Position numbers and translations under genes: made by a program. Shown in pieces: positions 9,326 through 45,269 of a stretch of DNA of 64,000 bases; within the stretch, counting starts at the first letter, position 1; every line of letters begins with the position of its first letter. The DNA is from Pedobacter puniceum (lineage in GTDB: Bacteria > Bacteroidota > Bacteroidia > Sphingobacteriales > Sphingobacteriaceae): contig NZ_WKJI01000001.1 of the NCBI RefSeq assembly GCF_009674685.1, forward strand, positions 930,001-994,000. The letters run 5' to 3'. The notes under the pieces are model-generated. The model was not told the origin of the DNA. It was given only the letters and a program-made list of their open reading frames with translations, and did no database searches.

Positions 9326-9807
9326 AGAAGAAAATTTTATTAGGCTTATTGGCTGTTTTGGTGATTATACAATTTATTAAACCAGAAAAAAATGTAAGCT
9401 CTACACCATCTGTTAACAGTATACACAATAAGTTTCCTGCAAATGAGGAAACCATGCAGATTTTAAAAACTGCTTGTAATGATTGCCATACCAACAATAC
9501 CGTTTACCCTTGGTATGCTCATATACAGCCAGTGGCTTGGTGGTTAGATAGCCATGTAGATGATGGTAAAAAACATTTAAATTTTGATGAGTTTTTAACT
9601 TACAAACTTAAAAAGCAAGACCATAAACTAGAAGAATTAATAGAGTCTCAGGAAGACCATTGGATGCCTTTAGATTCTTATACTTGGATACATAAAGATG
9701 CTAAGTTAGATGAAAAACAAAGACTTGCATTGGTTAATTGGGCTAAAGAAACACGTTTAAAAATTCAAAGCGACCCTGCTTTTGCATTAGAAGAAGATAA
9801 AAAATAG
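9322..9807 (+). CDS. Haem-binding domain (c-type, CxxCH) protein
   Basis: ACNDCHTNNTVYPWYAHIQPVAWWLDSHVDDGKKHLNFDEF; N-terminal signal anchor. Confidence 0.85.
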   Translation: MKKKILLGLLAVLVIIQFIKPEKNVSSTPSVNSIHNKFPANEETMQILKTACNDCHTNNTVYPWYAHIQPVAWWLDSHVDDGKKHLNFDEFLTYKLKKQDHKLEELIESQEDHWMPLDSYTWIHKDAKLDEKQRLALVNWAKETRLKIQSDPAFALEEDKK

Positions 9808-9818
9808 AAAAATGTATA

Positions 9819-10970: not shown

Positions 10971-11117
10971 CTTCTTTTTGTTTGAGCTTTCATTGTCTGT
11001 TTCAAAAATAGAAACAGGTTTATTAGCAATCTCATCGTTTCTTTTTACCAATAAATCTCTTTTAGCTTTTAGCTTTTTCCAGTCTTTTCTATTGGCTTGT
11101 GGTTCATCAAAAGTCAT
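10959..11117 (-). CDS. Small basic hypothetical protein (52 aa)
   Basis: Reverse-strand ORF not in the supplied track: MTFDEPQANRKDWKKLKAKRDLLVKRNDEIANKPVSIFETDNESSNKKKLKK*; 4 bp downstream of the next minus-strand gene. Confidence 0.5.
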   Translation of the reverse strand: MTFDEPQANRKDWKKLKAKRDLLVKRNDEIANKPVSIFETDNESSNKKKLKK

Positions 11118-11121
11118 AGCT

Positions 11122-11397
11122 TTAAATTTTAGCATGTCTAAAAATTAATAAATTAACCGTTAAAACTGCAGCACCCAATAGAAACTGAAACATATCGCCA
11201 AAAGGCAATAATTTTAAAGAAATAATCCAGCTGCCTATACTCAAAATTGATAAAACATAGAGTAAACTAGTGTATAACACATGCTGTTTGCCTTTATTTA
11301 GTTCTTCACTTAGTCTGTGTTGATGATGATTAAAATTTGTTTGTAGTGCGCTTTTGCTTTTTAAAGCTTTTACGCTACTGGCGATATTGATTTTCAT
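11122..11397 (-). CDS. Small membrane protein (91 aa)
   Basis: Two hydrophobic segments (VLYTSLLYVLSILSIGSWIISL; FQFLLGAAVLTVNLLIF). Confidence 0.5.
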   Translation of the reverse strand: MKINIASSVKALKSKSALQTNFNHHQHRLSEELNKGKQHVLYTSLLYVLSILSIGSWIISLKLLPFGDMFQFLLGAAVLTVNLLIFRHAKI

Positions 11398-11596
11398 AGC
11401 GATAATATTTTGGTAGACTATAAACTATAATCGATAACTGTACCAAAAAATCAATAAAATAGCTTTTACAGAAAATATATCAATTTGGGAGCTTTTAACT
11501 TAATGCTATAGCTTTTTTATAAAATTTTAGCGCCTATTGTGAATTGTTTAAAAAAAAATACAGCAGTCAATTGTTTAACTGTTATCTTCGCGGCGT

Positions 11597-11770
11597 TATG
11601 GTTCTCGTTTTAGAACGAGATTAAAAGGGAATGAAGTGTAATTCTTCAACTGTCCCGCAGCTGTAAGCTCTTTAAAACTGTTTCTAAATTTTGCCACTTG
11701 TCTGGTTCTACAGATGGGGAAGGCTAGAAACGGGGAGTAAGTCAGAAGACCTGCCTAACAGTTAAAAATT
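11597..11770 (+). ncRNA. Cobalamin (AdoCbl) riboswitch
   Basis: AAAAGGGAAT, ACTGTCCCGCAGCTGTAAGC (B12 box region), GCCACTTG, GGGAAGGC, AGTCAGAAGACCTGCC; directly upstream of a btuB-like receptor. Confidence 0.93.
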
Positions 11771-11873
11771 CATAGCTTTCGGGGATTGAAGCGTTTGAAT
11801 GAGAATACTACCATAAGGTATTTCAATTTCAAAACCAATTTTCTGTTTGCTGTGGGCTAAAACTCACAACAAA

Positions 11874-13790
11874 ATGAAAAGAAAAAACATTTACGTTGCA
11901 GCAGGCCTAGGGCTTGTTCAACTGGCATTAACAGATGCCCGGCTTTATGCACAATCGCAAAAGCCTAGTTCTTTAAACGAGGTAGTGGTTACAGCATCTC
12001 GTTCTCCAAAAAAAATCAGTGATATTGGTAAAATGGTTAGGGTAATCTCTAGAGAAGAGATAGAGCGCTCTCAAGGTAGGACTTTACCAGAATTGTTAAA
12101 CACTGTTCCAGGTTTAAATGTTACCGGTAGCGGTAGCGCTTTAGGCGAAGTAAAATCAGTTTATCTAAGAGGTGCATCAACAGCTAATACGCTTATTTTA
12201 ATAGACGGTATTCCGGTGAATGATGCATCAGGAATTTCTGGTGAATATAATTTAGCAGCTATCGCAATAGACCAAATAGAAAGAATAGAAGTATTAAAAG
12301 GTGCTAGCTCTACTTTATATGGTTCAGATGCTGTAGCAGGTGTTATCAATGTCATCACTAAAAAAGGAGAGGGCAAGCTTAAAACAAATGCCTTGTTAAG
12401 TGGTGGCTCTTACAATACTTACAAACAAGCTGTTGGTCTTAATGGTAATATCAATAAAACAGCTGTAGCTTTAAATTTTTCTAATTTAGATAGTAAAGGT
12501 TTTTCGTCTGCCCAGCCTTTAAATGCAGCTTCTCTTTTTGAGAAAGACAAATTTAGTCAGCAAGGTTTAAGTCTTAATTTATCTCAATACCTTAACAACA
12601 CCGTAAAAATATTAGGTGGTTTACAACTTAATAATAATAAATCTGGTTTAGATGGTGGAGCTTTTCAAGACAATACTAATTATAACTACAATAAAGTAGC
12701 TTTATTAGGAAATATTGGCGTTAATGTAGCTTTAAGAAAAGGTAATTTAAGCTTAATAGCTAGCCAAAATAATGTATCTAATAAGTTTAATAATAACGGC
12801 GCTAATAGTTATTATAAAGGCAGTATTACCAATGTAGAAAGTATATTCTCATACAAAGTGAATAACTTTTTAGATTTAACATCAGGGGCTAATTACAAAT
12901 ACAGTGCTACCGACCAATTTAGTGGTTTTGGTGCGCCACTTACTGCAGGAAATGCTAATAACAATATCGCTAGTCTTTTTACCTCTCTATTCTTTAACGT
13001 AAAAGATGTTTTTAGGATGGAGCTAGGTGGTAGATACAATAACCATAGCGCTTTTGGAGATAATTTTACTTATACTTTTAATCCTTCTGTATTACTATTC
13101 AATAGTATTAAGGTTTATGGTAATATTTCTTCTGCTTTTAGAGTACCAAGTTTATATCAGCTTACTTCAGAATATGCAGACCCTAATGGATTAAACCCAG
13201 AAACATCTTTTAACTATGAGGCTGGCTTTAGTACAGATTTATTCCAGAATAAATTAAACATCAATACCAGCGTCTTTTTTAGAGAGATTGATGATGTGAT
13301 TGATTTTGGCTCTAGAGCAGATGGTAGCTTTGGTTATTTAAATCAGAATCAGCAAAATGATGAGGGTATAGAAACCGAAATTGGCTTTAAACCTAGCGAT
13401 AAATTAAGCATCAGTGCATTTTATGCTTATGTATATGGTAGGGTAATTAAATCTCCGGGTACGCCAGGAGCTTTTAATCTTTCTAGAAGACCAGTAAATT
13501 CATCAGGCGCTAATGTGAGCTATAACTTGAATAAAAACTTAAGTTTTAGCCTATTATACAAATGGACAGATAGTAGAAGAGATATTTATTACGATACCGA
13601 TTTTAACGAACAAAATGTAGTTTTAACATCGTATCATAAGTTTGATGCCTATGTACAGTATAAAACAAAGAAAAATGTTACGCTTTTCGCGGATGTAAAA
13701 AATCTCTTTGATGCCAGATATAATGATTTTGCAGGCTATAATACCATGGGTACAAACTTTAATGTAGGTATAAGCTTTCTTTTTCAATAA
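11874..13790 (+). CDS. btuB: TonB-dependent vitamin B12 receptor
   Basis: Plug domain SLNEVVVTASRSPKKISDIGKMVRVISREEIERSQGRTLPELLNTVPGLNV; behind a cobalamin riboswitch; start at MKRKN (11874). Confidence 0.9.
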   Translation: MKRKNIYVAAGLGLVQLALTDARLYAQSQKPSSLNEVVVTASRSPKKISDIGKMVRVISREEIERSQGRTLPELLNTVPGLNVTGSGSALGEVKSVYLRGASTANTLILIDGIPVNDASGISGEYNLAAIAIDQIERIEVLKGASSTLYGSDAVAGVINVITKKGEGKLKTNALLSGGSYNTYKQAVGLNGNINKTAVALNFSNLDSKGFSSAQPLNAASLFEKDKFSQQGLSLNLSQYLNNTVKILGGLQLNNNKSGLDGGAFQDNTNYNYNKVALLGNIGVNVALRKGNLSLIASQNNVSNKFNNNGANSYYKGSITNVESIFSYKVNNFLDLTSGANYKYSATDQFSGFGAPLTAGNANNNIASLFTSLFFNVKDVFRMELGGRYNNHSAFGDNFTYTFNPSVLLFNSIKVYGNISSAFRVPSLYQLTSEYADPNGLNPETSFNYEAGFSTDLFQNKLNINTSVFFREIDDVIDFGSRADGSFGYLNQNQQNDEGIETEIGFKPSDKLSISAFYAYVYGRVIKSPGTPGAFNLSRRPVNSSGANVSYNLNKNLSFSLLYKWTDSRRDIYYDTDFNEQNVVLTSYHKFDAYVQYKTKKNVTLFADVKNLFDARYNDFAGYNTMGTNFNVGISFLFQ

Positions 13791-13825
13791 GATTTAATAA
13801 ATTTACCATTCATAATTTATAACAT

Positions 13826-14404
13826 ATGTCTTTAAATAAAATAAACGTAAGAAACTGGGTATTGGTAGTGATGATTCTTGCCGCAGCTGCTACAAGATTT
13901 TTTAGCTTAGGCGAACAAACTGCTTGGTCAAATTTTACCCCTGTAGGTGCAATTGCTATGTTTGGTGGTACTTATTTTACCAATAAATACAAAGCTTATT
14001 TAGTTCCTCTAATTACCCTTTTTATAAGTGATATTTTTGTAACCTATTCTTACACAGGAGAGTTTACTTTATTTTACGATGGTTTTATTTGGGTTTATAT
14101 CTGCTTTGTAGCTATGGTATTTATTGGAAGTTTAATTAAAACAGTTAATGTAAATACTGTTTTATTAGGTTCATTAGCTGGTGTTTTAATTCATTGGTTA
14201 GTTACTGATATTGAACCTTGGTTAGGTGGCACTTTATACAATAAAGACATTACAGGTTATTACCAATCTTTAATTGCAGCAATTCCTTTTGAGAAAAACC
14301 TATTGTTAGGAAACTTAGTATTTGGTGCAGTTTTATATGGTGGTTTTGAATTAGCAAAATCTAAATTCACTATCTTAAAAAGTCAAAAAGAATTGGCATA
14401 CTAA
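13826..14404 (+). CDS. DUF6580-like membrane protein, putative ECF S-component-like transporter
   Basis: AAATRFFSLGEQTAWSNFTPVGAIAMFGGTYFTNKYKAYLVPLITLFISD; several TM segments; between btuB and cobU. Confidence 0.7.
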   Translation: MSLNKINVRNWVLVVMILAAAATRFFSLGEQTAWSNFTPVGAIAMFGGTYFTNKYKAYLVPLITLFISDIFVTYSYTGEFTLFYDGFIWVYICFVAMVFIGSLIKTVNVNTVLLGSLAGVLIHWLVTDIEPWLGGTLYNKDITGYYQSLIAAIPFEKNLLLGNLVFGAVLYGGFELAKSKFTILKSQKELAY

Positions 14405-14423
14405 TGCCAAATGGTATACCTTA

Positions 14424-14546
14424 AAGAGGTTGTCTAAATAATCGTATTTGTCACATTGAGCGGAGTCGAAATGTACTCTGAATTACTCAAAAAAGGCTTC
14501 GACTCCGCTCAGCCTGACAAAAAATGATGTTGTAAGACAACCTCTT
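14424..14546. repeat. MITE/REP-like element with perfect 12-bp terminal inverted repeats
   Basis: AAGAGGTTGTCT (14424-14435) and AGACAACCTCTT (14535-14546); nested inner repeat GAGCGGAGTCGAA (14458-14470) and TTCGACTCCGCTC (14498-14510). Confidence 0.75.
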
Positions 14547-14574
14547 TTTTTGTGTTTAAAATTTAAGAAATATC

Positions 14575-15078
14575 ATGATTTACTATATATCTGGGGGTGC
14601 CCGTTCTGGGAAAAGTAGTTATGCACAAAATCTTGCTTTATCTTTAACCAATAAGCCTGTTTATTTGGCTACGGCCCGTAATTGGGATAAAGATTTTGAA
14701 AAACGTATCATCAGGCATCAACAAGACCGAGATGAGCGCTGGGAGAATATAGAAGAAGAGAAATATCCCGCTAAAATTGATTTTACAGGCAAAGTAGTAG
14801 TTATAGATTGTGTAACCTTATGGCTTACCAATTTTTTTGTAGATACTAAATACGATGTAGAAGCATCTTTAGAACAAATAAAACAAGCTTTTGATGATTT
14901 AACGCAACAAGAGGCTACTTTCATCATCATCTCTAATGAATTAGGAATGGGCTTACATGCCGATACAGAATCCGGAAGGAAGTTTACCGATTTGCAAGGT
15001 TGGTGTAATCAATACATTGCTAAAAAATCGGATAAAGCTATCTTTATGGTATCAGGTTTACCACTTACGCTAAAATAA
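14575..15078 (+). CDS. cobU: Adenosylcobinamide kinase / guanylyltransferase
   Basis: MIYYISGGARSGKSSYAQNLA, YLATARNWDKDFEKRIIRHQQDRDERW, ISNELGMGLHADTESGRKFTDLQGWCNQYIA. Confidence 0.95.
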   Translation: MIYYISGGARSGKSSYAQNLALSLTNKPVYLATARNWDKDFEKRIIRHQQDRDERWENIEEEKYPAKIDFTGKVVVIDCVTLWLTNFFVDTKYDVEASLEQIKQAFDDLTQQEATFIIISNELGMGLHADTESGRKFTDLQGWCNQYIAKKSDKAIFMVSGLPLTLK

Positions 15079-15086
15079 ATTGCCTT

Positions 15087-15779
15087 ATGAAAAAGAAAAT
15101 CATTGTTTTAACTGGTGCCGGTATCAGTGCGGAAAGTGGCTTAAAAACTTTTAGAGATGCCGATGGCTTGTGGGAAGGTTATGCTATTGAAGATGTTGCT
15201 ACACCAGAAGCTTGGCAAAGAAACCCAGCCTTAGTACAGCAGTTTTATAATGAAAGAAGAAAAGGTGTTTTAGCAGCAGAACCTAATCCTGCACATTTTG
15301 CCTTGAAAAAATTAGAAGAAAAGTTTGAAGTCCTAATCATCACCCAAAATATTGATGATTTACATGAGCGAGCAGGTTCTTCAAATATTATGCATTTACA
15401 TGGAGAAATTGTTTATGCCCGCTCTTCGCAGAACCCGGCCTTGCTATATAAATTAGATAAGCCTGAAATAGAAATGGGAGAATTATGTGAGTTAGGCAGT
15501 CAGCTACGCCCACATGTGGTGTGGTTTGGCGAGGCTGTACCCATGATTACCAAGGCTATGCATGAAATGCCTTTGGCGGATATAGTTATCTTAATTGGCA
15601 GCTCATTAGCTGTGTATCCCGCTGCGGGTTTATTAGAGCTTGCTCGTAAGGAGGTACCTGTTTATGTTATAGATCCTAAAATACCTGAAGTTAGAATCTC
15701 CAATCCACTTATTAAAATAGAAGAGAAAGCTAGCCTTGCTGTTCCTCTTTTAGTTGAAAAACTGTTGAAACATGAATAG
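15087..15779 (+). CDS. cobB: SIR2-family NAD-dependent protein deacylase
   Basis: VLTGAGISAESGLKTFRDADGLWEGY, ITQNIDDLHERAGSSNIMHLHGE, RPHVVWFGEAVP. Confidence 0.92.
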   Translation: MKKKIIVLTGAGISAESGLKTFRDADGLWEGYAIEDVATPEAWQRNPALVQQFYNERRKGVLAAEPNPAHFALKKLEEKFEVLIITQNIDDLHERAGSSNIMHLHGEIVYARSSQNPALLYKLDKPEIEMGELCELGSQLRPHVVWFGEAVPMITKAMHEMPLADIVILIGSSLAVYPAAGLLELARKEVPVYVIDPKIPEVRISNPLIKIEEKASLAVPLLVEKLLKHE

Positions 15780-16494
15780 GAAACCATGTATTTTTAATTG
15801 GAGCGGGGGTAAAGACTCGGCTTTAGCTTTATATTACTTATTGCAAAATCCAGATTATGAGGTTAAATATTTGGTAACTACTATTAATGATAGTTTAAAT
15901 CGTATTTCTATGCATGGAGTACGAGAATCACTCTTGTTGCAACAGGCAGCAAGCTTAGGTATTCCATTATATCAAATTAGATTACCGGAAATGCCAGGTA
16001 TGTCAGTATATGATGAAATCATGCATCATCATTTAACCATTCTGAAAGAAGAAGGAATTACACATTCCGTTTTTGGAGATATTTTTTTGGAGGATTTAAA
16101 AGCTTACCGCGAAGCGAAATTACAAGAAGTAGGGATGGAGGCCGTATTTCCACTGTGGCAAAAAGATACTAAAAAATTAATTCACGACTTCTTGAATTTA
16201 GGTTTTAAAACTGTAATAGCTTGCACACAAGAAAATTTAGGAGCTTATGTAGGGAAAGTTATTGATATAGCTTTAATAAACAGTTTGCCAGAAAATATAG
16301 ACCCATGCGGAGAAAACGGAGAATTCCACACTTTTGTGTTTGAAGGCCCGATATTTAAAAACGCTATTTCTTATACTTTAGGCGAGAAAGTTTTTAAAAG
16401 CTATCCAACTCCCAAAAATGAAGATGATGTTTGCTTTACAAAAGACGATAAACCTAAAAACCTAGGCTTCTGGTATGTGGATTTGGTGGGGTAG
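15772..16494 (+). CDS. PP-loop ATPase related to diphthine-ammonia ligase (Dph6-like)
   Basis: NWSGGKDSALALYYLL PP-loop and VFGDIFLEDLKAYREAKLQEVGMEAVFPLWQKDT. Confidence 0.85.
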   Translation: MNRKPCIFNWSGGKDSALALYYLLQNPDYEVKYLVTTINDSLNRISMHGVRESLLLQQAASLGIPLYQIRLPEMPGMSVYDEIMHHHLTILKEEGITHSVFGDIFLEDLKAYREAKLQEVGMEAVFPLWQKDTKKLIHDFLNLGFKTVIACTQENLGAYVGKVIDIALINSLPENIDPCGENGEFHTFVFEGPIFKNAISYTLGEKVFKSYPTPKNEDDVCFTKDDKPKNLGFWYVDLVG

Positions 16495-16499
16495 ATGTA

Positions 16500-16610
16500 C
16501 TAGTTTGTTAGGTGGTTAGTTGGTTAGTTTGTTAGGTGATTGATTTATTAGTTTGTTAGGTGGTTAGGGGTTAGTTTTTTTGTTCATTGGTTCACTAGTT
16601 GATTAGGGCC
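16500..16610. repeat. Degenerate TTAGTTTGTTAGGTGGTTAG repeat
   Basis: Repeated (TTAGTTTGTTAGGTGGTTAGTTGG) units; a related tract occurs at 50777-50840. Confidence 0.7.
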
Positions 16611-16640
16611 TATAAATTTGTATAATTAGTCTTAAAAACA

Positions 16641-16676
16641 AAAAGTGCTTAAACTCTACAGAATTTAAGCACTTTT
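16641..16676. terminator. Bidirectional rho-independent terminator
   Basis: AAAAGTGCTTAAA/TTTAAGCACTTTT. Confidence 0.75.
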
Positions 16677-16714
16677 AACTTATTACTTTTGAATTTTCAC
16701 TTTTGAATTTTCAA

Positions 16715-18106
16715 TTAAATATATCCCAGAATCTTCAAAACTTGTTTACTGTTTTGCTCTTCGCCAAAAACCTCATAGTTAAAAGTTTCGTCTCTATTTC
16801 TTCTGATGATGACATGCTTAGGAGAAGGTAATAAGCAATGGTGTATACCACCGTATCCACTTAAAACTTCTTGATAAGCACCCGTATGGAAGAAACCCAA
16901 ATATTGTACTTTACGTGTTTTAGGCATAAAAACGCTGTTCATGTGTGCTTCTTGGTTGTAATAATCTTGTCCGTCGCAGGTAATACCACCTAAGTTAACA
17001 CGTTCATATTCAGCATCCCAATTATTAATAGGTAATAAAATATAACGCTGATTTAATGCCCAAACATCAGGAAGGTTAGTGATAAAAGAACCATCAAGCA
17101 TTAACCACTTTTCACGATCGTTTTGTTGTTTTCTACCTAGTACTTTGTATAGGATACCAGAAGCTTCGGCACAAGTGTATTTGCCAAATTCGGTAATAAT
17201 ATCTGGTTCCATTACCTCATGTTCGGCACAAATTTCTTTAATACGTTTTACAATCTCATTGATCATGTATTCATAATCAAAATCAAATACCAAAGAATCT
17301 TTAAATGGCATACCACCACCAATATCTAAAGTATCTAATTCTGGATTGATTTTCTTGAACTTACAATATAAGGTAACGTATTTTTCTAACTCGTTCCAAT
17401 AATAAGGTGTATCAGAAATACCAGAGTTGATGAAAAAGTGTAGTAGTTTAACTCTAAAATTAGGGTTTTTGCTGATTTTAGAATTATAAAAGTCTATAAC
17501 ATCTTCTTGTCTTATTCCTAAACGTGAGGTGTAGAACTGAGAATCTGGCTGCTCTTCTGCTGCAATTCTAATTCCTAAGTTACAAGGGATATCTAGCTCA
17601 ACTTCATCATCATATAAATTAAACTCTTCTTTATTGTCTAAAACAGGGATAATATTTGTAAAACCATCATGCAACATATCTATAATATATTGCTTGTATT
17701 GAAAAGTTTTAAAACCGTTACAAATAACCGTAATATCTTTAGTAACTGCACCTTTCTTCTCCAAAGCATCAATCATAGGCATATCAAAAGCTGACGATGT
17801 TTCTAAGTGAATATCATTCTTTAAAGCTTCCTCTACAATATGCTTAAAGTGCGAGCTTTTGGTACAATAGCAGTATTTATAACTACCACGATAGTTGTTT
17901 TTAAGAATAGCAGTTTGAAATAGAATCTTGGCCTGCTGAATTTTTTTACTGATGATAGGTAAATAGGTGAAGCGCAGGGGAGTACCGTACGTTTCAATCA
18001 TCTCCATTAGGTTTAGATCATGAAAATATAATTCATCATCAATAATGTCAAAACCTTCTTGTGGGAAACCAACACTGAGGTCTAAGAATTCTTCGTAACT
18101 CTGCAT
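16715..18106 (-). CDS. speA: Biosynthetic arginine decarboxylase (PLP fold III)
   Basis: YCYCTKSSHFKHIVEEALKNDIHLETSSAFD, LDIGGGMPF, MLDGSFITNLPDVWALNQRYILLPINNWD. Confidence 0.85.
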   Translation of the reverse strand: MQSYEEFLDLSVGFPQEGFDIIDDELYFHDLNLMEMIETYGTPLRFTYLPIISKKIQQAKILFQTAILKNNYRGSYKYCYCTKSSHFKHIVEEALKNDIHLETSSAFDMPMIDALEKKGAVTKDITVICNGFKTFQYKQYIIDMLHDGFTNIIPVLDNKEEFNLYDDEVELDIPCNLGIRIAAEEQPDSQFYTSRLGIRQEDVIDFYNSKISKNPNFRVKLLHFFINSGISDTPYYWNELEKYVTLYCKFKKINPELDTLDIGGGMPFKDSLVFDFDYEYMINEIVKRIKEICAEHEVMEPDIITEFGKYTCAEASGILYKVLGRKQQNDREKWLMLDGSFITNLPDVWALNQRYILLPINNWDAEYERVNLGGITCDGQDYYNQEAHMNSVFMPKTRKVQYLGFFHTGAYQEVLSGYGGIHHCLLPSPKHVIIRRNRDETFNYEVFGEEQNSKQVLKILGYI

Positions 18107-22230: not shown

Positions 22231-22336
22231 GAAAAAATAGTTTTTTTGCTTAAATCCTTATTTGCAAAACTATTAACTTAAAATTATATTTACCAAATCC
22301 CAAAATTTAATACCATCATATTATTACAGAACCTAC

Positions 22337-25300
22337 ATGGATAACCTAATAAATAATTTCTCCATTGATGCTTTACAAAGCTTTTTTTACAACAAAATAT
22401 CAAGCTTTAAACCTATTAAAGAAAATCTTTCGGACATTTTATTAAAAAATAATTTCAACCAGTTTACTGATTTATTAAAAATAGGCGAAACCACTTTTAA
22501 TGGCTCCGAAGATTTATTGGTTTTTACATGTAAAGCAAAAACTATTTTATCAGAACGTTCTTCAAAAAAACAACAGTTTGAAATTGCTAAAAAAGTCCTA
22601 AAAGAAGATTTTAAAGATGGTGCCATCTTTGTTTTTTATGATGATGCAGGTAGTTTTAGATTTTCTTTCCTCCGTAAAAACTACGGAAATAAGGAGCAGA
22701 AATTCACGACTTGGAAACGCTATACCTACTACATAGAGAAAGATAAAACTAACAAAACCTTTAAAAATAGAATTGGAAATGCCGATTTTTCCTCTTTAGA
22801 CGCAATACAAAAAGCTTTCAGTGTAGAGAAACTGACTGAAGATTTTTATAAAGAGCTTTTCGCGTGGTATCAATGGACATTATCAGAAGAAATTGGGGTA
22901 ACGTTTCCAAACAATACAGAAACACATGAAGATGACCGAGTAAAATTAGAAGAACAGATTATACGTTTGATAACTAGATTATTATTCGTCTGGTTTATTA
23001 AACAGAAAAAACTTGTTCCTGCTCATTTATTTGATACTGAAAATTTAAAAAACTATTTAAAAGATTTCAATCCTAATAGTAAAGAAGATGGCAATTATTA
23101 CAATGCCATTTTACAAAACCTATTCTTTGCAACATTAAACAAGGAAATCTCCGAAAGAGCATTCTCAAAATTAGTTAAAGAACGAGATATAAAAACATTA
23201 TACCGTTATGCAGAAATGTTTTCAATCTCTGAAACAGAAGTTTTAGCCTTATTTAACCAAGTACCTTTCCTAAATGGTGGTTTGTTTGAATGTTTAGATA
23301 AAACAGAAAAAATGAACGGTACTAACCAAGTCTTAGATGGCTTTAGTAAAAACCCTACTAAATCTGCTAATGGTAATTTTAAGCACCGGGCATTTATCCC
23401 AAATTGTATCTTTTTTGATGATAAAAAAGGTATAATTCCACTTTTAGAACGCTACAACTTTACGGTAGAAGAAAATGCTCCAAATGAGATACAGGTTGCG
23501 CTAGACCCAGAATTATTAGGTAATGTTTTTGAAAATTTATTAGGTGCTTTTAACCCAGAAACTAAAGAAACTGCTCGTAAACAATCAGGGTCTTTTTATA
23601 CTCCAAAAGAAATTGTAAGTTATATGGTAGATGAAAGCTTAATCTTTTATCTGCATAATAGCTTTCCAAATTTAAAAGAAGAAAGTATCCGAGAACTATT
23701 TACAGCAGAAGAATTACCACTTGATTTTGCTAATAACCAAGCACTTTGTGAAGAAGTATCCTTAAAATTAAAAGAAATTAAAATATTAGACCCTGCTTGT
23801 GGTTCTGGTGCTTTTCCAATGGGTATTTTAAACAGAATGGTAGAGGTATTAGAAAAACTAGCTTGTCATAAAGAAAAATCTATTTACGATTTAAAACTTC
23901 ATTTAATAGAAGAATGTATTTATGGGGTTGATATACAAACCATAGCAGTACAAATAAGCAAGTTGCGTTTCTTTATATCGCTTATTGTGGAAGAACACGA
24001 TATTGATTTTACAAATCATCAAAACAACTATGGGATTCTTACCTTACCAAATTTAGAAACAAAATTTGTAGCTGCTAACACTTTAATTGGTATAAAACGT
24101 AAACCAGCGCAACACAATTTATTCGAAAATCCACAAATTGACCAAACTAAAGAAGATTTATTAGAAATTAGAAAAGAGCATTTCTACGCTAAAACAGCTA
24201 ATCGTAAAAAAACTTTGAGAGAAAAGGATGCCGAGTTAAGAGAAAAACTATCACTACTACTTCAAAACAATAACGATTATACGGCTGAAGATGCCATACA
24301 ATTTTCAAAGTGGAATCCTTACGACCAAAATGCTAGCTCTCCATTTTTTGATGTAGAATGGATGTTCGGCTTAAAAAGTGTAAGTGCTAATGAAGGTTGT
24401 TTTGATGTTGTGATTGGGAATCCACCTTATGTTCAATTACAAAAAGACGGCGGTAGACTAGCAAAAATGTATGATAAATTAGGCTATAAAACTTTTGAAA
24501 GAATGGGAGATATTTATTCGCTTTTTTATGAAAAAGGTAATCAAATTTTGAAAAATGGTGGATGTTTAACATATATAACAAGTAATAAATGGATGAGGGC
24601 TGGATATGGAGAAAGTACAAGAAGATATTTTGCAGAAAAAACTAATCCAATTTTACTAATTGATTTTGCTGGACACAAAATATTTGATAATGCAACTGTA
24701 GATACAAATATCTTAATGTTTCAAAACGCTAAAAATGAAGGTGAAACAAAATCCTGTATAGTTAAAAAAAAATGGGATGATAGTTTACATAATTATGTTA
24801 ATGATAATCAAACTATAAATAGTTTTACCTCATCTAATAGTTGGATTGTTTTAAGCCCAATAGAATTAGGAATTAAAGAAAAAATAGAAAAAATAGGTAC
24901 ACCACTTAAAGATTGGGATGTAAATATTTATCGAGGAATTCTCACAGGTTACAATGAAGCCTTTATTATTGATGGTAAAAAGAAGGATGAGTTAATAGCA
25001 GAAGATCCAAAATCTGCCGAAATTATTAGACCTATTTTAAGAGGTAGGGATATAAAACGTTATTCATACGAATTTGCTGAATTATATATAATTGCCATGT
25101 TTCCAAGTAAAAAATATGATATTGAAAATTATCCCGCTGTAAAACAGCATCTTTTAAGTTTTGGATATGATAGATTGAAACAAACTGGAGATAAAGGCGC
25201 CAGAAAGAAAACAACCAATAAATGGTACGAAACACAAGATAGTATAGGTTATTGGGAGGATTTTTATAAACAAAAAATAATCTATCCAAACATGACTAAA

Positions 25301-25675
25301 TATCTACCATTTGTATTTGATGATAAGGGATATTTAACAAACCAAAAGTGTTTTATTATTACAGGGGAGAATATCGCTTTTTTAACTGCTTTTTTAAATT
25401 CTTCTCTTTTTAAATATTGTTTTAAAGATAACTTTCCTGAATTATTGGGAGGAACAAGAGAGTTAAGTAAAATATTTTTTGAAAAGATACCTGTATTGCA
25501 AGTTTCAGAAGATATTAATACTGAATTTGAAAGATTAATTAATCAACTTCAAGATTCCATCAATAATAGTCAAGTAACTCAACTACTTGAGATACAAATT
25601 GATAATAAAATTTTTGATTTATATTGTTTAAATAATGAAGAACGAGAAATTATTGGTTTTATTGAGATTGAATAA
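22337..25675 (+). CDS. Type IIG/PglX-like (Eco57I-type) N6-adenine methyltransferase with C-terminal TRD; currently expressed allele
   Basis: SAM motif ILDPACGSGAFPMGILNRM; catalytic VIGNPPYVQLQ; QSGSFYTPKEIVSYMVDESL; TRD IRPILRGRDIKRYSYEFAELYII...EDFYKQKIIYPNM. Confidence 0.9.
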   Translation: MDNLINNFSIDALQSFFYNKISSFKPIKENLSDILLKNNFNQFTDLLKIGETTFNGSEDLLVFTCKAKTILSERSSKKQQFEIAKKVLKEDFKDGAIFVFYDDAGSFRFSFLRKNYGNKEQKFTTWKRYTYYIEKDKTNKTFKNRIGNADFSSLDAIQKAFSVEKLTEDFYKELFAWYQWTLSEEIGVTFPNNTETHEDDRVKLEEQIIRLITRLLFVWFIKQKKLVPAHLFDTENLKNYLKDFNPNSKEDGNYYNAILQNLFFATLNKEISERAFSKLVKERDIKTLYRYAEMFSISETEVLALFNQVPFLNGGLFECLDKTEKMNGTNQVLDGFSKNPTKSANGNFKHRAFIPNCIFFDDKKGIIPLLERYNFTVEENAPNEIQVALDPELLGNVFENLLGAFNPETKETARKQSGSFYTPKEIVSYMVDESLIFYLHNSFPNLKEESIRELFTAEELPLDFANNQALCEEVSLKLKEIKILDPACGSGAFPMGILNRMVEVLEKLACHKEKSIYDLKLHLIEECIYGVDIQTIAVQISKLRFFISLIVEEHDIDFTNHQNNYGILTLPNLETKFVAANTLIGIKRKPAQHNLFENPQIDQTKEDLLEIRKEHFYAKTANRKKTLREKDAELREKLSLLLQNNNDYTAEDAIQFSKWNPYDQNASSPFFDVEWMFGLKSVSANEGCFDVVIGNPPYVQLQKDGGRLAKMYDKLGYKTFERMGDIYSLFYEKGNQILKNGGCLTYITSNKWMRAGYGESTRRYFAEKTNPILLIDFAGHKIFDNATVDTNILMFQNAKNEGETKSCIVKKKWDDSLHNYVNDNQTINSFTSSNSWIVLSPIELGIKEKIEKIGTPLKDWDVNIYRGILTGYNEAFIIDGKKKDELIAEDPKSAEIIRPILRGRDIKRYSYEFAELYIIAMFPSKKYDIENYPAVKQHLLSFGYDRLKQTGDKGARKKTTNKWYETQDSIGYWEDFYKQKIIYPNMTKYLPFVFDDKGYLTNQKCFIITGENIAFLTAFLNSSLFKYCFKDNFPELLGGTRELSKIFFEKIPVLQVSEDINTEFERLINQLQDSINNSQVTQLLEIQIDNKIFDLYCLNNEEREIIGFIEIE
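25027..25044 (+). repeat. Inverted repeat A, copy 1 (recombination site)
   Basis: TAGACCTATTTTAAGAGG; exact reverse complement at 26278-26295. Confidence 0.85.
25255..25281 (+). repeat. Inverted repeat B, copy 1
   Basis: GGAGGATTTTTATAAACAAAAAATAAT; exact reverse complement at 26047-26073. Confidence 0.8.
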
Positions 25676-26046
25676 AGTTAAATTCTTCATTTGTTAATTT
25701 GTACAAATTACTAACTAGAACTTCAATTTTTGATTCAAGAATTCTGGTGTCTTCGTTTTTTTTCTTTTTTACTATTATCTCATTTACTAATTTAATAAAT
25801 GATTTCTGCTCAATTTCAGATATTATTGGGATTGGGAACATGTTTACATTTTGTCCGCCAACTTGGACATCCCCAACACCTGTTTTATTCATGTTAGTAA
25901 TAAAGCTATACCATATTATAATTTTTGAATTCAAAATAGAAAGTAGATACTCTAATCCTTTACCTATCAGAATATAACAAGCATTATTGACTATATATCG
26001 ATCTGAATCTATGGAAAATGCCATTTGATTACCAATAATTTTCCAA

Positions 26047-26073
26047 ATTATTTTTTGTTTATAAAAATCCTCC
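26047..26073 (-). repeat. Inverted repeat B, copy 2
   Basis: ATTATTTTTTGTTTATAAAAATCCTCC, reverse complement of 25255-25281. Confidence 0.8.
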
Positions 26074-26277
26074 ATATAAGCACAATTCCTTAAATTGTAG
26101 AGTGTATCTCCCTTATCAGTCCTTTTTGCTAAAATTTCAAAGTATTGATCTAAATGTTTTTTTATTGCAGGATAATCCTCTGCCTTAATAGGTTTTATGC
26201 CTTTTTCTTTAACTCCATTGTGTATATTGATTAACCATATATCAGCAAAATCATAAGTATATTTTTTAATATCTCTG

Positions 26278-26295
26278 CCTCTTAAAATAGGTCTA
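26278..26295 (-). repeat. Inverted repeat A, copy 2 (recombination site)
   Basis: CCTCTTAAAATAGGTCTA, reverse complement of 25027-25044. Confidence 0.85.
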
Positions 26296-26330
26296 TTATC
26301 TTATACAATTTTTAACAATATATTTAAGCC

Positions 26331-26948
26331 ATGATATACGGTTACATAAGAGTAAGTACTGATAAACAAACAGTAGAAAATCAAAGATTTGAAATAAATC
26401 AATTTTGTAGCAAACAAGAATTGTTTATAGAAAGATGGATAGAAGAAACTATTTCAGGCACAAAGGAAGTTGATAAACGTACTCTCGGAAAGCTTCTAAA
26501 AAAGACTCAAAAAGGTGATGTATTAATTTGTTCAGAATTATCACGTTTAGGTAGGAGCTTATTTATGATAATGGAAGTACTCAATTATTGCATGAAAAAA
26601 GAAGTGCAGGTTTGGACTATAAAAGATAATTATCGTTTAGGGAATGATATAAATTCTAAAGTGCTCGCATTTGCTTTTGGATTATCTGCCGAAATAGAAA
26701 GAAACTTGATCTCCCAAAGAACTAAAGAAGCACTTTCAAGAAAAAAAGCAGAAGGCGTTGTTCTTGGCAGGCCGATAGGAAAAAAATCAACAAAAGTTAA
26801 ACTAACTGGTAAAGAGAAAAAAATTTCAGATTTACTAAAAAAAAATGTTTCTTACAGTGCAATTGGAAGAATATTAGGAGTACATCGCTTAACTGTTTCT
26901 AAGTTTGCACATGAAAGACTAAAATCCTTAACTAATTTAAACTTTTAA
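26331..26948 (+). CDS. Serine site-specific recombinase, DNA invertase (Mpi-like)
   Basis: MIYGYIRVSTDKQTVENQRFEI, ELSRLGRSLFMIMEVL, KDNYRLGNDINSKVLAFAFGLSAEIERNLISQRTKEALSRKKAEGVVLGRP, C-terminal HTH. Confidence 0.93.
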   Translation: MIYGYIRVSTDKQTVENQRFEINQFCSKQELFIERWIEETISGTKEVDKRTLGKLLKKTQKGDVLICSELSRLGRSLFMIMEVLNYCMKKEVQVWTIKDNYRLGNDINSKVLAFAFGLSAEIERNLISQRTKEALSRKKAEGVVLGRPIGKKSTKVKLTGKEKKISDLLKKNVSYSAIGRILGVHRLTVSKFAHERLKSLTNLNF

Positions 26949-27049
26949 TATATTGTTTTGTAAATTCATTCAAAAAGTAGTTCTCTTTATGGGGTTAAAA
27001 TTTCCCTGAAATATAGAAGAGTTCTTTAATTTTAAATTAGAAATTTGGT

Positions 27050-28882
27050 ATGCAAAGCCTTTCAGAAATTATCAATTTATTAAACAGTACAGATGAATGC
27101 GCTACCCTAGAAGCTAAAAGAGGTACGGCCATTGGTCATTCGGTTTTAGAAAGTATTTGTGCTTTTGCAAACGAGCCAGGTTTAGGTGGTGGTACTATTA
27201 TTTTAGGGGTAACCCGTGATGAAAGCTCCTTATTTCCTGTATATCAAATAGAAGGTATAAAAGATCCAGATAAATTACAAGCTGATTTAGCCAGTCAAAC
27301 CGCATCATTATTTAACCAACCTATTAGACCACAAATAGAGTTAGAAACAACGCCGAATAATAAATTAGTACTTAAAATTAAAGTACCTGAACTTCCAGAT
27401 GGGCAAAAACCACTATATTTTAAAAACGAAGGCTTACCCAAAGGTGCATACAGGCGTATTGGTTCTACAGACCAGCATTGTACCGAAGATGATTTATTTG
27501 TTTTTTACAACAAGGAAGATAGTTTAGATAGTACCATAGTTAATGATACTAGCTTAGAAGATATTAGTGAAGAAGCTATCACACTATACCGTAATTTACG
27601 TAGCAAAGTAAATGAATATGCAGAGGAATTAACTTATAGTGATATTGATTTACTTCGCTCGTTAGGATGTATAAAAAAGCATAAAGACGATTATAAATTA
27701 ACTTATACAGGTTTATTGGTTTTTGGTAATAGAATGGCTTTAAGACGCTTAATGCCAATGGTAAGGGTAGATTATATACGAGTTCCCGGCAACACCTGGG
27801 TAGAAAACCCCGACAGTAGGTTTACTACTGTAGATATGCGTGGCCCCATGATACAATTAGTGCAACGTATTTTTAGTGCCATAGCAGATGATTTACCCAA
27901 AGGTTTTCTATTACCAGAAGGCGAGTTACAAGCTACCAATATTGGTTTGCCATCTAAAGTGTTACGTGAAGCAATAGTTAATGCACTTATCCATCGTACT
28001 TACAGAGAGAATCAGCCTATTCAAATTATTAGGTATGGCAATCGTTTAGAAATTAAAAACCCAGGCTTTTCGCTTAAACCCGAAGAACAATTAGGAGAGC
28101 CTGGCTCTAAAAATAGAAACCCCTTTATCGCATCCATATTTCACGAAACAAACTTAGCAGAAACCAAAGGTAGTGGAATAAGGATTATGCGTAGCTTAAT
28201 GGAAAAATCATCACTAGCTCCACCAACATTTGAAAGTAACCATACAGCAAATCAATTTACAACAAGGTTATTACTGCACCACTTCCTTAGTGAAGCTGAT
28301 ATAGCATGGCTTAAAACGTTTGAAGTTTACCAATTAAACGACGCACAAAAAAGAGCTTTAATTTTTGTTAGAGAAACAGGAGCCATAGATAATCAAGCTT
28401 ATAGACAACTTAATGGATGTGATATTTTAAAAGCGAGTACAGAGTTAAGAGCCATGAGAGATGTTGCATTATTGCAGCAAAAGGGTAAAGGAAGAGCCAC
28501 TTATTATATTATAGATAGTGGGTTTAATGCACCACTTACATCGCTAAGTACACCAGTTAGTGTGCTTAGTGCATCAGTTAATACACAACCTAATACCCTT
28601 AATACAGAACCTCAATCGTTATTACATGAGTTTCCAGATCATTTGCAAAGTGAGATAGCTCAAATTACAGTGAGAGAGAAAGACATCAATAAGATAAAAA
28701 ATCTGATTTACAAAATATGTAAGCATAGAAGTTGTTCTGTAAGAGAAATTGCAGCGCTCATAAAAAGAAAAGAAAATACAGTATTAAGAAATTATATTAT
28801 ACCTATGAAAGAGGATAATAAACTTCAATACACAATTCCTGATATGCCAAATCATCCAGATCAAGCCTATCAATCTATTTAA
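27050..28882 (+). CDS. AlbA_2 (Schlafen-like) plus HATPase_c_4 ATP-binding protein
   Basis: ATLEAKRGTAIGHSVLESICAFANEPGLGGGTIILGV; LPSKVLREAIVNALIHRTYRENQPIQIIRYGNRLEIKNPGF...ETKGSGIRIMRSLM. Confidence 0.85.
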   Translation: MQSLSEIINLLNSTDECATLEAKRGTAIGHSVLESICAFANEPGLGGGTIILGVTRDESSLFPVYQIEGIKDPDKLQADLASQTASLFNQPIRPQIELETTPNNKLVLKIKVPELPDGQKPLYFKNEGLPKGAYRRIGSTDQHCTEDDLFVFYNKEDSLDSTIVNDTSLEDISEEAITLYRNLRSKVNEYAEELTYSDIDLLRSLGCIKKHKDDYKLTYTGLLVFGNRMALRRLMPMVRVDYIRVPGNTWVENPDSRFTTVDMRGPMIQLVQRIFSAIADDLPKGFLLPEGELQATNIGLPSKVLREAIVNALIHRTYRENQPIQIIRYGNRLEIKNPGFSLKPEEQLGEPGSKNRNPFIASIFHETNLAETKGSGIRIMRSLMEKSSLAPPTFESNHTANQFTTRLLLHHFLSEADIAWLKTFEVYQLNDAQKRALIFVRETGAIDNQAYRQLNGCDILKASTELRAMRDVALLQQKGKGRATYYIIDSGFNAPLTSLSTPVSVLSASVNTQPNTLNTEPQSLLHEFPDHLQSEIAQITVREKDINKIKNLIYKICKHRSCSVREIAALIKRKENTVLRNYIIPMKEDNKLQYTIPDMPNHPDQAYQSI

Positions 28883-28892
28883 TAAACACACT

Positions 28893-28937
28893 TAATACAT
28901 AAGCTAGCTTATGTATTAGTGCTTAATACATAAGCTA
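28893..28937. promoter_or_regulatory. 26-bp perfect palindrome plus an additional direct half-repeat
   Basis: TAATACATAAGCTAGCTTATGTATTA (28893-28918); CTTAATACATAAGCTA repeated at 28891-28906 and 28922-28937, just before the ATG at 28945. Confidence 0.6.
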
Positions 28938-28944
28938 AACTAAA

Positions 28945-31900
28945 ATGGCAAACAATTTTATCACCAATAACACTACTCATAAAAGCTTAAAAGGCAGGTT
29001 AAACACCTTAATTGGCATTAGTGAAGAATTAAAATTTTTAGTAGGTTTCTTTTATTTTTCTGGCTGGCAAGAGTTGTATCAAAGCTTACAAAAAAATACT
29101 ACTTTAAAATTAAAGCTATTAGTAGGTTTACAAGTTTGTAACCACTTAAATAAAGTTTTAGAGTATATTAATCAAGATGAAGCACTATCACAAGACGAGC
29201 ATTTTAATGAGTTTATTACCTCACTAGGTTTTGCATTAAATAATCAAGAATTAGATACAGAAGCATTTTACAACCAAGTAGAATTTTTCTTACAAATGCT
29301 TCAGGATGAACGCTTAATTATTCGTAAAACAGAAAACCCAAACCATGCTAAATTATATCTATTCAGATTAAATCAAGAACAAGCAGAAATCCAGAATATG
29401 GAAGGGCAATTTGTAACGGGTAGCAGCAATTTAACAAAAGCAGGTTTATCTGGTCAAGAAGAATTTAATGTTGAAATTAAAGATTATGGTTTCAAAGATG
29501 CAGAGAGTTATTTTGACGAATTATGGGGGAAAGCCATCCCAATTTCTGAAGTCGAAAATCGCAAACAATTTCTAATTCAATTTATACAACACAAATCCCA
29601 AGCGGCAACAATAACCCCATTTGAAGCTTATGCGCTCATTTTAAAAACATATTTAGATTTACAATTACAAAAACAAATTAAGCCAGAAGTAGAAGGATTA
29701 TTAGAAGAAATTGGTTTTAAAAAGTTTGCTTATCAAACAGATGCCGTAAACCAAGCATTAACTGTAATTAACGAATACAATGGAGTAATCATTGCCGATG
29801 TAGTAGGTTTAGGTAAATCAGTTATTGCATCACTTATAGCAAAAAACTTAGGTAAAAGAGGCATGGTAATTTGTCCTCCAGGATTAATTGGTGATAGAAA
29901 TTACCATACAGGCTGGTGGGAGTATATCGAAAAATTTAAACTTTACGATTGGGAAGTACAAAGTAGAGGTAGATTAGAAGAGATTGCAGAAACCATTAAT
30001 AATAAAGGTATTGAAGTTTTAATTATAGACGAGGCTCATTACTTTCGTAATCAAGACACCGCAGACTATGAAGCACTTCTAAATATATGCAGAGACCGTA
30101 CAGTTATTTTATTATCAGCAACACCATTCAATAATTCTCCAGCAGATATTTTTTCACTCCTAAAGCTTTTTATCATACCGGGTAAATCAGGTATTTCCGT
30201 CGATGACAATTTAGAGGGCTTATTTAGTAATTTTAATTACAGATATAAGCAGTTATCCACCATTACAAAAAATGCAAATTCGTTATATAGTTTAAAAATT
30301 AAAAAAGCAGAAGCTTTATATAAAATCATAATTGATGATCAATTACCTATTGATATAAAAAAGGTAAGAAGTGCAACAAAACACTTAGCTAATCAAATTA
30401 AGCAAATTATATCATCTGTAGTAATTCGTAGAAACCGTCTGGATTTAAAACAAGATTACATCTATGCTAAAGAGGTATCCGAGCTTTCAAAAGTAAAAGA
30501 CCCAATAGAGTTATTTTATCATTTAACACCAGAGCAAAGTATTTTTTATGATAGCATATTAAATGAATACTTCTCAGAAAATGGAAGGTTTAAAGGGGCT
30601 ATTTACCAGCCGTTTAGTTACGAGAAAAAAGTTGAAGATGAAGAAAAACTAGACGAAAAGGGAAACAGAGCCTTCCAACAACAGCGCAACTTATATGATT
30701 TTATGAGAAGATTGCTGGTTAAGCGTTTCGAAAGTTCTTTTGGTGCATTTGAAAAATCTATTGACAGGTTTTTAAATGTACACCTAACTGTTAAAGATTT
30801 TATTAATAGTTCTAATGGTAAATTTATTTTAGACAGAGACTTTATGGAACGTATTCTCGCTTTTGACGAGGAAGATATACTAGCCAATTTGGATAAATAT
30901 GCACAAGGAGATTTAAAAAAGAAAACTCCTAAAAATAATACAGTTTACGATATTAATAAATTTGAACGCAAAGAAGAGTTTCTAAATGATATTGATAATG
31001 ATATATCAATTTTCAAAGAGATTAAAAAAGCTTTAACTAATCTAAATATTGTTCAAAACGATCCAAAAAGAAAAGAGATTACAAAAGAAATCAAAAGAAT
31101 ACTAACTACTGATAAGAACCGTAAAATTATTTTATTTTCAGAATATGTAGATACAATTCTTCATTTAGAAGATTATCTAAGAGTAGAGTTTGGAAACAGA
31201 TTGCTTGTATGTGCTGGTAAAGTATCAAAAGAACTATCAAAAAATTTAAGTTCCGATTTTAACGCACAATACAAAGGTGGTCAAACTAATAATTTTGATG
31301 TAATAATTACATCAGATAAACTATCTGAGGGTTTTAATTTAAATAGGGCAGGAGCAATTATAAATTATGATATCCCATGGAATCCTACACGAGTAATACA
31401 AAGAGTAGGTAGAATAAATCGTATTGGTGCAAAAGTTTTTGACGAACTATATATTTATAATTATTTTCCATCAGAAATAGGTGCTGATATAGTTAAATCA
31501 AGAGAAATTGCACAACAAAAAATGTTCTTAATTCATAGTTCTTTGGGTGAAGATGCCAAAATATTTGATATAGAAGAAGAACCATCTGCATCTGGTTTAT
31601 ACAGTAAGTTAAACCAAAGTCCGGATGAAGATGGAGAATTAAACACAGTAACGATAGTGAGAAATACGTTTAAAGATATTGAGGAAAAATATCCAAGCGT
31701 TATTGAAAAAATAAACAATCTCCCACCTCGTGTTAAAACAGCTAAGAAGTTTGATACAAATAATTTGAATGTATTAAGAAAAAAGGGGTTAAGTCTTTTT
31801 GCTCAAGTGGTAGATTTAACAGAAAAGAGCAGTGGAGATATAGAAGAGGTAATATTCGAAGAATTACTTAAAAACGTGAAATGCGAATATGAAGAACCTC

Positions 31901-32301
31901 GCTTATCATTATCAGATGAGTTTTGGCCTACGTATGAAAAAATTAAAAACTTCAAACCTAATTTCAAAACAGGCAGAAGTGATATTGCATTAGAGTCAAA
32001 AGCATATGAAAACTTACAAGTCTATTTAAAGATTTTAAATGGGAAAGAAGAAACATTAGCAGAATTTATAAAAATGCTCCTTCTGGACATAAAGAAGTAT
32101 CATACACTTTCAACTCGTTCGATTGGTAGATTAGGAAGGAAAATAATTTCAAAAGAAACAAATGAAAAAGAGTTAAAAGCTTTTAGAGATGATATATTTT
32201 GGTTAAGAAATCATTTAGGATTAAACTATCTAAACAAGATTTTAGAACGTGTAGATAAATACCAAAATGAAGTAATTATTGCAGTTGAGAATATCTATTG
32301 A
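28945..32301 (+). CDS. PLD-like nuclease domain fused to an SNF2-type helicase
   Basis: N-terminal NHAKLYLF (HxK) and GQFVTGSSNLTKAGL; helicase GVIIADVVGLGKSVIASLIA, LIIDEAHYFRN, LLSATPFNNSP, DIPWNPTRVIQRVGRINRIG. Confidence 0.9.
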   Translation: MANNFITNNTTHKSLKGRLNTLIGISEELKFLVGFFYFSGWQELYQSLQKNTTLKLKLLVGLQVCNHLNKVLEYINQDEALSQDEHFNEFITSLGFALNNQELDTEAFYNQVEFFLQMLQDERLIIRKTENPNHAKLYLFRLNQEQAEIQNMEGQFVTGSSNLTKAGLSGQEEFNVEIKDYGFKDAESYFDELWGKAIPISEVENRKQFLIQFIQHKSQAATITPFEAYALILKTYLDLQLQKQIKPEVEGLLEEIGFKKFAYQTDAVNQALTVINEYNGVIIADVVGLGKSVIASLIAKNLGKRGMVICPPGLIGDRNYHTGWWEYIEKFKLYDWEVQSRGRLEEIAETINNKGIEVLIIDEAHYFRNQDTADYEALLNICRDRTVILLSATPFNNSPADIFSLLKLFIIPGKSGISVDDNLEGLFSNFNYRYKQLSTITKNANSLYSLKIKKAEALYKIIIDDQLPIDIKKVRSATKHLANQIKQIISSVVIRRNRLDLKQDYIYAKEVSELSKVKDPIELFYHLTPEQSIFYDSILNEYFSENGRFKGAIYQPFSYEKKVEDEEKLDEKGNRAFQQQRNLYDFMRRLLVKRFESSFGAFEKSIDRFLNVHLTVKDFINSSNGKFILDRDFMERILAFDEEDILANLDKYAQGDLKKKTPKNNTVYDINKFERKEEFLNDIDNDISIFKEIKKALTNLNIVQNDPKRKEITKEIKRILTTDKNRKIILFSEYVDTILHLEDYLRVEFGNRLLVCAGKVSKELSKNLSSDFNAQYKGGQTNNFDVIITSDKLSEGFNLNRAGAIINYDIPWNPTRVIQRVGRINRIGAKVFDELYIYNYFPSEIGADIVKSREIAQQKMFLIHSSLGEDAKIFDIEEEPSASGLYSKLNQSPDEDGELNTVTIVRNTFKDIEEKYPSVIEKINNLPPRVKTAKKFDTNNLNVLRKKGLSLFAQVVDLTEKSSGDIEEVIFEELLKNVKCEYEEPRLSLSDEFWPTYEKIKNFKPNFKTGRSDIALESKAYENLQVYLKILNGKEETLAEFIKMLLLDIKKYHTLSTRSIGRLGRKIISKETNEKELKAFRDDIFWLRNHLGLNYLNKILERVDKYQNEVIIAVENIY

Positions 32302-32480
32302 GTTAAATCTAAACTTAACTATAAATTAAGTACCAATTGTATTAAGGAAACTGAATATGTGGATGTTTTTTGTATAAAGATAAGCCTAACAGGTAATTAA
32401 CAGTTTTTTCCTGTGATTTCTTTTTTACCATTGATGTTTTTTAGATATATTATTAATTAGCGTAATTTAATTTATAACAA

Positions 32481-45250: not shown

Positions 45251-45269
45251 TTTGGTTTAATATTATTGG

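What the first reader, a model, noticed from the sequence alone, without database searches (positions are those of the whole stretch)
22337..26948. Phase-variable type IIG-like methylase: invertible TRD segment flanked by 18-bp inverted repeats beside its own serine invertase
Seen directly: TAGACCTATTTTAAGAGG occurs inside the methylase CDS (25027-25044) and inverted at 26278-26295, 35 bp before an Mpi-like invertase ATG. Between them a second TRD 3' end lies tail-to-tail on the minus strand, overlapping the expressed gene's end by 17 bp (25659-25675). Frame arithmetic fits: from the repeat centre the expressed tail is 213 codons including stop (protein 1112 aa) and the silent tail is 209 codons including stop (predicted 1108 aa), both read RPILRGRDIK across the repeat. 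The repeat core CCTATTTTAAGAGG is an imperfect dyad with an asymmetric central TT, as expected for serine-invertase crossover sites. Established: serine invertases drive inversion-based antigen, promoter and hsdS/pglX switching. Inference: cells toggle between two methylation/restriction specificities.
Basis: partly seen in the sequence, partly recalled or inferred. Interest (0 to 1): 0.92.

Follow-up and report, generated by a model that had tools for sequence, protein, structure and literature searches.

The report
Self-inverting DNA methylase specificity switch
A bacterial DNA-marking defence gene sits beside its own DNA-flipping enzyme and a backwards spare end; related genomes carry the same ends swapped whole or by halves, so the cell can probably change which DNA sequence it marks, with up to four settings rather than the two first proposed.

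Summary
An exact 18-bp inverted repeat (site A) joins the methylase gene to a silent, tail-to-tail second TRD end beside an intact Mpi-family serine invertase. Together A and B allow four in-frame methylases (1112, 1108, 1110, 1110 aa).

Related loci support switching. Three pairs carry the same two tails in swapped positions; two more pairs have only the C-terminal halves swapped (site-B exchange). N- and C-half identities are uncorrelated (r=0.05). Within a locus the arms are codon-identical at A, B and an outer site far above background, and site A uses CGA-CCG-ATT in 28, 24 and 29 of 31 loci (3.9, 5.4, 13.9 expected), so these look like DNA-level recombination sites. Invertase and reverse tail co-occur.

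'Type IIG' is only partly right: no nuclease site is recognisable in the methylase; a neighbouring HKD-SNF2 helicase has invariant motifs (66/66).

Caveats: switching in this strain is not shown; its site A is off-consensus and it lacks the outer site. Inversion of Type II R-M genes was, as I recall, already predicted (Milman 2023, not readable here). New variant of a known kind.

The parts
22337..25675 (+). Expressed N6-adenine methylase, 1112 aa (Eco57I MTase core, TaqI_C specificity domain)
   Evidence: CDS read directly
25027..25044 (+). Site A, left arm, TAGACCTATTTTAAGAGG, encodes RPILRG
26278..26295 (-). Site A, right arm (exact inverted copy)
25255..25281 (+). Site B, left arm, GGAGGATTTTTATAAACAAAAAATAAT, encodes EDFYKQKI
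26047..26073 (-). Site B, right arm (exact inverted copy)
25659..26294 (-). Silent second TRD tail, 211 codons plus stop, no start of its own at the repeat
26331..26948 (+). Mpi-family serine invertase, 205 aa, intact
   Evidence: NCBIfam NF009949 335 bits, cut-off 272; Pfam Resolvase
27050..28882 (+). Schlafen/AlbA_2 plus RecG-C/HATPase-like protein, 610 aa; present only in some related loci
28945..32301 (+). HKD (PLD-like) nuclease plus SNF2 helicase, 1118 aa; presumed nuclease-translocase partner
   Evidence: HxK, GSSN, Walker A conserved in 66/66 loci
22295..32347 (.). About 10-kb island between mnmE and a GH43 gene; not present at this place in close relative G001

Best explanation
This is a self-contained specificity switch of a modification-restriction defence island. 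The Mpi-family invertase recombines inverted sites embedded in the coding sequence of the methylase. Inversion at site A exchanges the whole C-terminal TRD; inversion at site B exchanges only its C-terminal half. Two N-halves and two C-halves thus give up to four methylases of different DNA specificity, always with exactly one expressed. The HKD-SNF2 helicase is the likely nuclease that cuts DNA lacking the current mark. Shown: anatomy, frames, repeats, family-wide swapping and codon-level constraint at the sites. Inferred: that the invertase is the agent, that inversion occurs in this strain, that specificity changes, and that the helicase is the nuclease.
For: Four in-frame products from two repeat pairs. 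Reciprocal whole-tail swaps in three pairs of loci: L049/L080 crossed 0.87/0.84 against parallel 0.35/0.32; L079/L087 0.79/0.73 against 0.30/0.29; Lactococcus plasmids L115/L117 0.61/0.56 against 0.28/0.28. Site-B swaps: L079/L090 N parallel 0.73/0.82 and C crossed 0.67/0.57 against 0.27/0.25; L058/L064 N 0.87 and C crossed 0.67/0.76 against 0.21/0.18. N-half and C-half identity uncorrelated, r=0.05 over 2602 pairs. Codon identity between arms 51% in general against 85% at B, 72% at A (about 91% for its R-P-I codons) and about 97% at the outer site. CGA-CCG-ATT bias at A. Invertase and reverse tail: 34 both, 6 neither, 4 discordant, p=1e-4; 27 of the 30 top Mpi-family loci in the order lie beside such a tail, and 2 of the 3 others stop at a contig end. 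Contig ends pile up at the region: 21 in the first 500 bp against about 1 per 500 bp further on.
Against: No read data; the assembly shows one orientation. The window's site A reads AGA-CCT-ATT instead of CGA-CCG-ATT, and the outer site used by most relatives is missing. Swapped pairs are between genera, so cassette transfer could contribute. Part of the repeat identity is protein conservation: the chance of identical codons is about 0.009 at A and 0.03 at B. The contig-end pile-up can also come from long repeats alone, and the 80 best loci are a selected set.
Confidence: 0.75

Rival explanations
1. Two-state switch only: recombination happens at site A alone, and site B is simply a conserved protein motif (EDFYKQKI) that looks repeated because both TRDs need it.
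For: EDF-K-K is conserved at protein level in much of the family; the synonymous identity of B within the window alone is only p about 0.03.
Against: Across loci the codon identity at B between arms is near complete (for example 25/25, 24/24, 23/23) against 65% between loci and 51% background. Free-standing C-half cassettes begin at B in L058, L064, L083, L101 and L102. C-halves are swapped alone in two pairs.
Confidence: 0.2
2. Locked remnant: the locus descends from a working switch but no longer inverts here, because the outer site was lost and site A drifted from the consensus.
For: Outer site absent and A off-consensus in the window; decayed relatives exist, such as G007 whose invertase has two stops, and loci with a reverse tail but no invertase found (L062, L101).
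Against: The invertase frame is intact and over the family cut-off. Both arms of A share the same departures. B is 27 bp exact and close to consensus. The silent tail is fully open.
Confidence: 0.18
3. General homologous recombination (or horizontal exchange of cassettes), not the invertase, produces the swaps.
For: Some loci carry repeats of 100-310 bp; pneumococcal hsdS recombination goes on without any known site-specific recombinase (PMC6620402, title and abstract).
Against: The window repeats are only 18 and 27 bp; invertase and reverse tail co-occur strongly; the repeats carry a synonymous-site consensus shared by A, B and the outer site, which homologous recombination does not need.
Confidence: 0.12

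Closest known systems
Gene-altering programmed inversions in Type II R-M genes (Milman, Yelin, Kishony, NAR 2023, doi 10.1093/nar/gkac1166)
   Same: As I recall the abstract: inversions that swap gene ends, predicted across bacteria, with Type II R-M as a new target and long-read support. The paper exists in reference lists but is not held.
   Different: I could not check whether it contains this family, the two-site half-TRD scheme, the codon-embedded sites or the HKD-SNF2 partner.
Phase-variable Type I hsdS shufflons (Streptococcus pneumoniae cod/spnIII, PMC4948785; Bacteroides fragilis)
   Same: Inverted repeats inside a specificity gene, silent partner, half-TRD combinations, nearby recombinase.
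   Different: Here the TRD is fused to the methylase; no HsdS, HsdM or HsdR; serine (Mpi) rather than tyrosine recombinase.
Mpi master DNA invertase of Bacteroides fragilis
   Same: Same NCBIfam family, over its cut-off.
   Different: Mpi is known for many distant promoters; here the sites are local and coding, two copies each in the genome.
Type-2 BREX-related (BR) systems (PMC12839542)
   Same: N6-methylase with HKD-SNF2 helicase nuclease; Schlafen proteins as accessories in BREX and BR systems.
   Different: No DUF499 ATPase and no DUF3780 in the island; no invertase found by a word search of that paper.
TRD domain movement (DOMO) in Helicobacter pylori (PMC3077401)
   Same: Specificity pieces move by recombination at repeats, including a Type IIG S subunit.
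   Different: Between positions or alleles of S genes, with no dedicated invertase known.

Membership tests
Type IIG restriction-methylase | N6-methylase motifs and a C-terminal TRD in one chain | tested here: met
   Eco57I 128 bits, TaqI_C 53 bits; DPACGSG and NPPY invariant; PADLOC REase_MTase_IIG 469 bits
Type IIG restriction-methylase | Own nuclease active site in the N-terminal part | tested here: inconclusive
   No conserved D-E-x-K in the alignment, only R108, R128, T141 invariant; a confident model (pLDDT 88.5) has no match at E<0.001
Mpi-family serine invertase | Score over the curated family cut-off, intact frame | tested here: met
   335 bits against 272
Mpi-family serine invertase | Inverts DNA | not testable with these tools
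   No reads and no bench
Inversion-based specificity switch | Inverted repeats in frame within gene and silent partner, both products open | tested here: met
Inversion-based specificity switch | Alternative configurations found in nature | tested here: met
   Met for the family between related genomes; not for this strain
Type I R-M (hsdS) switch | Separate HsdS, HsdM, HsdR | tested here: not met
   TRD fused to the methylase; no such genes in the island
BREX | PglX over cut-off | tested here: not met
   95 bits against 500
Type-2 BR system | DUF499 ATPase and DUF3780 | tested here: not met
   Not among the island's genes; definition from PMC12839542
DISARM | DrmD over cut-off | tested here: not met
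   135 bits against 610

The most novel reading that the evidence does not exclude
A widespread class of modification-based defence island (HKD-SNF2 helicase plus methylase plus dedicated Mpi-type invertase) in which one invertase acts on two or three short sites hidden in conserved codons of the methylase, shuffling N- and C-half TRDs independently so that a single locus encodes four or more DNA specificities.
Probability: 0.5. Interest if true: 0.72.

Novelty: new variant of a known kind. Interest (0 to 1): 0.6.

Why it matters
If true, cells of one clone differ in both what they methylate and which incoming DNA they cut, in more than two ways from one gene, which would hinder phages that carry the right marks from a previous host cell. 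It also gives a natural set of interchangeable half-TRDs with known joints, useful for asking how such enzymes read DNA and for making new specificities. The codon-embedded sites give a simple sequence signature to find more such loci.

Tried and rejected
BREX/PglX, DISARM and Type-2 BR membership were checked and not met. The near-identical pairs L035/L045 and L040/L041 are cut at contig ends and carry the same tail. L085/L089 share both N-halves but have new C-halves, so they show replacement at B, not a flip. Structure: the full model is only fair (pLDDT 70, the TRD N-half poorly modelled) and finds CamA, BrxX and MmeI; the N-terminal domain finds nothing, so I do not claim a nuclease fold. 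Promoter and terminator scans gave nothing above chance. Simple repeats with 1.5-kb flanks were too short to contain the outer site.

Full report
Check of the observation. The 18-bp repeat TAGACCTATTTTAAGAGG is at 25027-25044 (+) and 26278-26295 (-), exact, with no third copy within 3 mismatches in the window and 0.11 matches expected. In the whole genome the two copies stand alone; other 3-mismatch matches are as frequent as in the reversed control. Inverting the segment in silico gives a 1108-aa protein identical through residue 907. The silent tail is open for 211 codons (chance about 3e-9) and is homologous to the expressed tail (35% identity, E=1.8e-25).

What was missed. A second inverted repeat, longer than the first, lies inside the TRD: GGAGGATTTTTATAAACAAAAAATAAT, 27 bp exact, 25255-25281 and 26047-26073. 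It encodes EDFYKQKI in frame in both tails and occurs only twice in the genome, with none in the control. Inversions at A, B, or both give four different open proteins of 1112, 1108, 1110 and 1110 aa, and the silent partner stays open in each.

The genes. The methylase has Eco57I and TaqI_C domains and best matches PADLOC type IIG models. The invertase exceeds the cut-off of NCBIfam's Mpi family. Downstream are a Schlafen/AlbA_2-ATPase protein and an HKD-SNF2 helicase. In close relative G001 (mnmE 97% identical) this place holds about 1.3 kb of other DNA between mnmE and the GH43 gene, so the four genes form an island. By identity of tails in genomes of the same family with named Pedobacter and Sphingobacterium records, the host belongs to the Sphingobacteriaceae; its genus was not named.

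Relatives. A scan of named genomes gave 80 loci in Bacteroidota and a few bins labelled as other phyla. Many share the layout: methylase, reverse tail, Mpi-family invertase, HKD-SNF2 helicase. Among 44 loci with enough sequence downstream, 34 have both invertase and reverse tail, 6 neither, 4 one of them (Fisher p=1e-4). In the window's order 36 of 400 genomes have an Mpi-family invertase over the cut-off; of the 30 best loci 27 lie beside such a TRD tail, two others stop at a contig end, one is a real exception.

Evidence that swapping happens. Three pairs of loci carry the same two tails in exchanged places: Pedobacter sp. AJM (L049) and Sphingobacterium lumbrici (L080), Alloprevotella tannerae (L079) and Porphyromonas canoris (L087), and two Lactococcus plasmids (L115, L117); crossed identities are 0.56-0.87, parallel ones 0.28-0.35. 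Split at site B, the N-half and C-half identities are uncorrelated across 2602 tail pairs (r=0.05); of 356 pairs with N-half identity of at least 0.7 only 22 have a C-half identity of at least 0.5. In L079/L090 the N-halves are parallel (0.73, 0.82) and the C-halves crossed (0.67, 0.57); in L058/L064 likewise with a free-standing C-half cassette. L079, L087 and L090 thus show three of the four arrangements of the same four half-cassettes. Free-standing C-half cassettes starting at site B occur in five loci.

Evidence that the sites are DNA sites and not only protein motifs. At residues identical in both tails of one locus, codons agree in 51% in general, 72% at A (82 of 90 at its R-P-I codons), 85% at B (near 98% in its core) and about 97% at an outer site near residue 817. 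Between loci the figures are 50% (A) and 65% (B). At A the codons CGA, CCG and ATT are used in 28, 24 and 29 of 31 loci against 3.9, 5.4 and 13.9 expected from the same genes. Consensus strings are outer GAGCGnTTTtGTnCagCA, A GACCgATTnTncGnGGCa, B GGAgGATTTtTntAAGCcaAAAAT; they share a G-rich left part and a TTTT-like centre, which suggests one enzyme for all three, an inference I did not test statistically. The window departs from this at A (AGA-CCT-ATT in both arms) and has no outer site; its B is canonical.

Assembly hint. Of the 80 contigs, 21 end within 500 bp after residue 817 and 6 in the next 500, against about one per 500 bp beyond. Mixed orientations would do this, but so would long repeats, and the 80 are a selected set; I treat it as supportive only.

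Where the cutting may be. The methylase N-terminal domain has no conserved nuclease residues and its confident model matches no solved fold at E<0.001. The helicase keeps HxK and GSSN of an HKD nuclease and the Walker A motif in 66 of 66 loci and the other helicase motifs in 65. I therefore take the helicase as the likely nuclease; this is inference.

Comparison and novelty. It works like hsdS switches of Type I systems but is built on a fused methylase-TRD and a serine invertase. It is not BREX, DISARM or a Type-2 BR system by their defining parts. A 2023 study of gene-altering inversions (cited in PMC11892184; not held) reported, as I recall, Type II R-M genes as a new target, so the kind is known. 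The two-site half-TRD scheme with codon-embedded sites and an HKD-SNF2 partner was not found in the papers I could search, which is weak evidence of novelty because most subscription papers and that study were out of reach.

What is not shown: inversion in this strain, the invertase as agent, a change of methylation motif, and restriction.

Noticed in passing
L118 (Prevotella nigrescens second replicon) 9001-17131: Larger version: invertase, two partial TRD genes with an ATP-binding protein gene between them, then the methylase and helicase on the other strand; looks like a multi-cassette shufflon.
   Followed up: no
L053, L070, L083, L102: Loci with three or more TRD tails or C-half cassettes, implying six or more possible methylases.
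   Followed up: partly
G007:C11:464714-468218 (L114): Same genus, second locus of this layout with a different methylase; its invertase frame has two internal stops.
   Followed up: partly
L062 (Prevotella vespertina) 9483-9732: An N-half fragment in the wrong orientation and no invertase found; may be a product of recombination between unlike sites.
   Followed up: no
window 44970-45397 and 58747-59165: Intergenic direct repeats (74 nt 92%, 167 nt 86%, and 65-nt units) on both sides of a 14-kb stretch; no Rfam match.
   Followed up: partly
window 11582-11771: Cobalamin riboswitch (105 bits) just before a TonB-dependent receptor gene.
   Followed up: no
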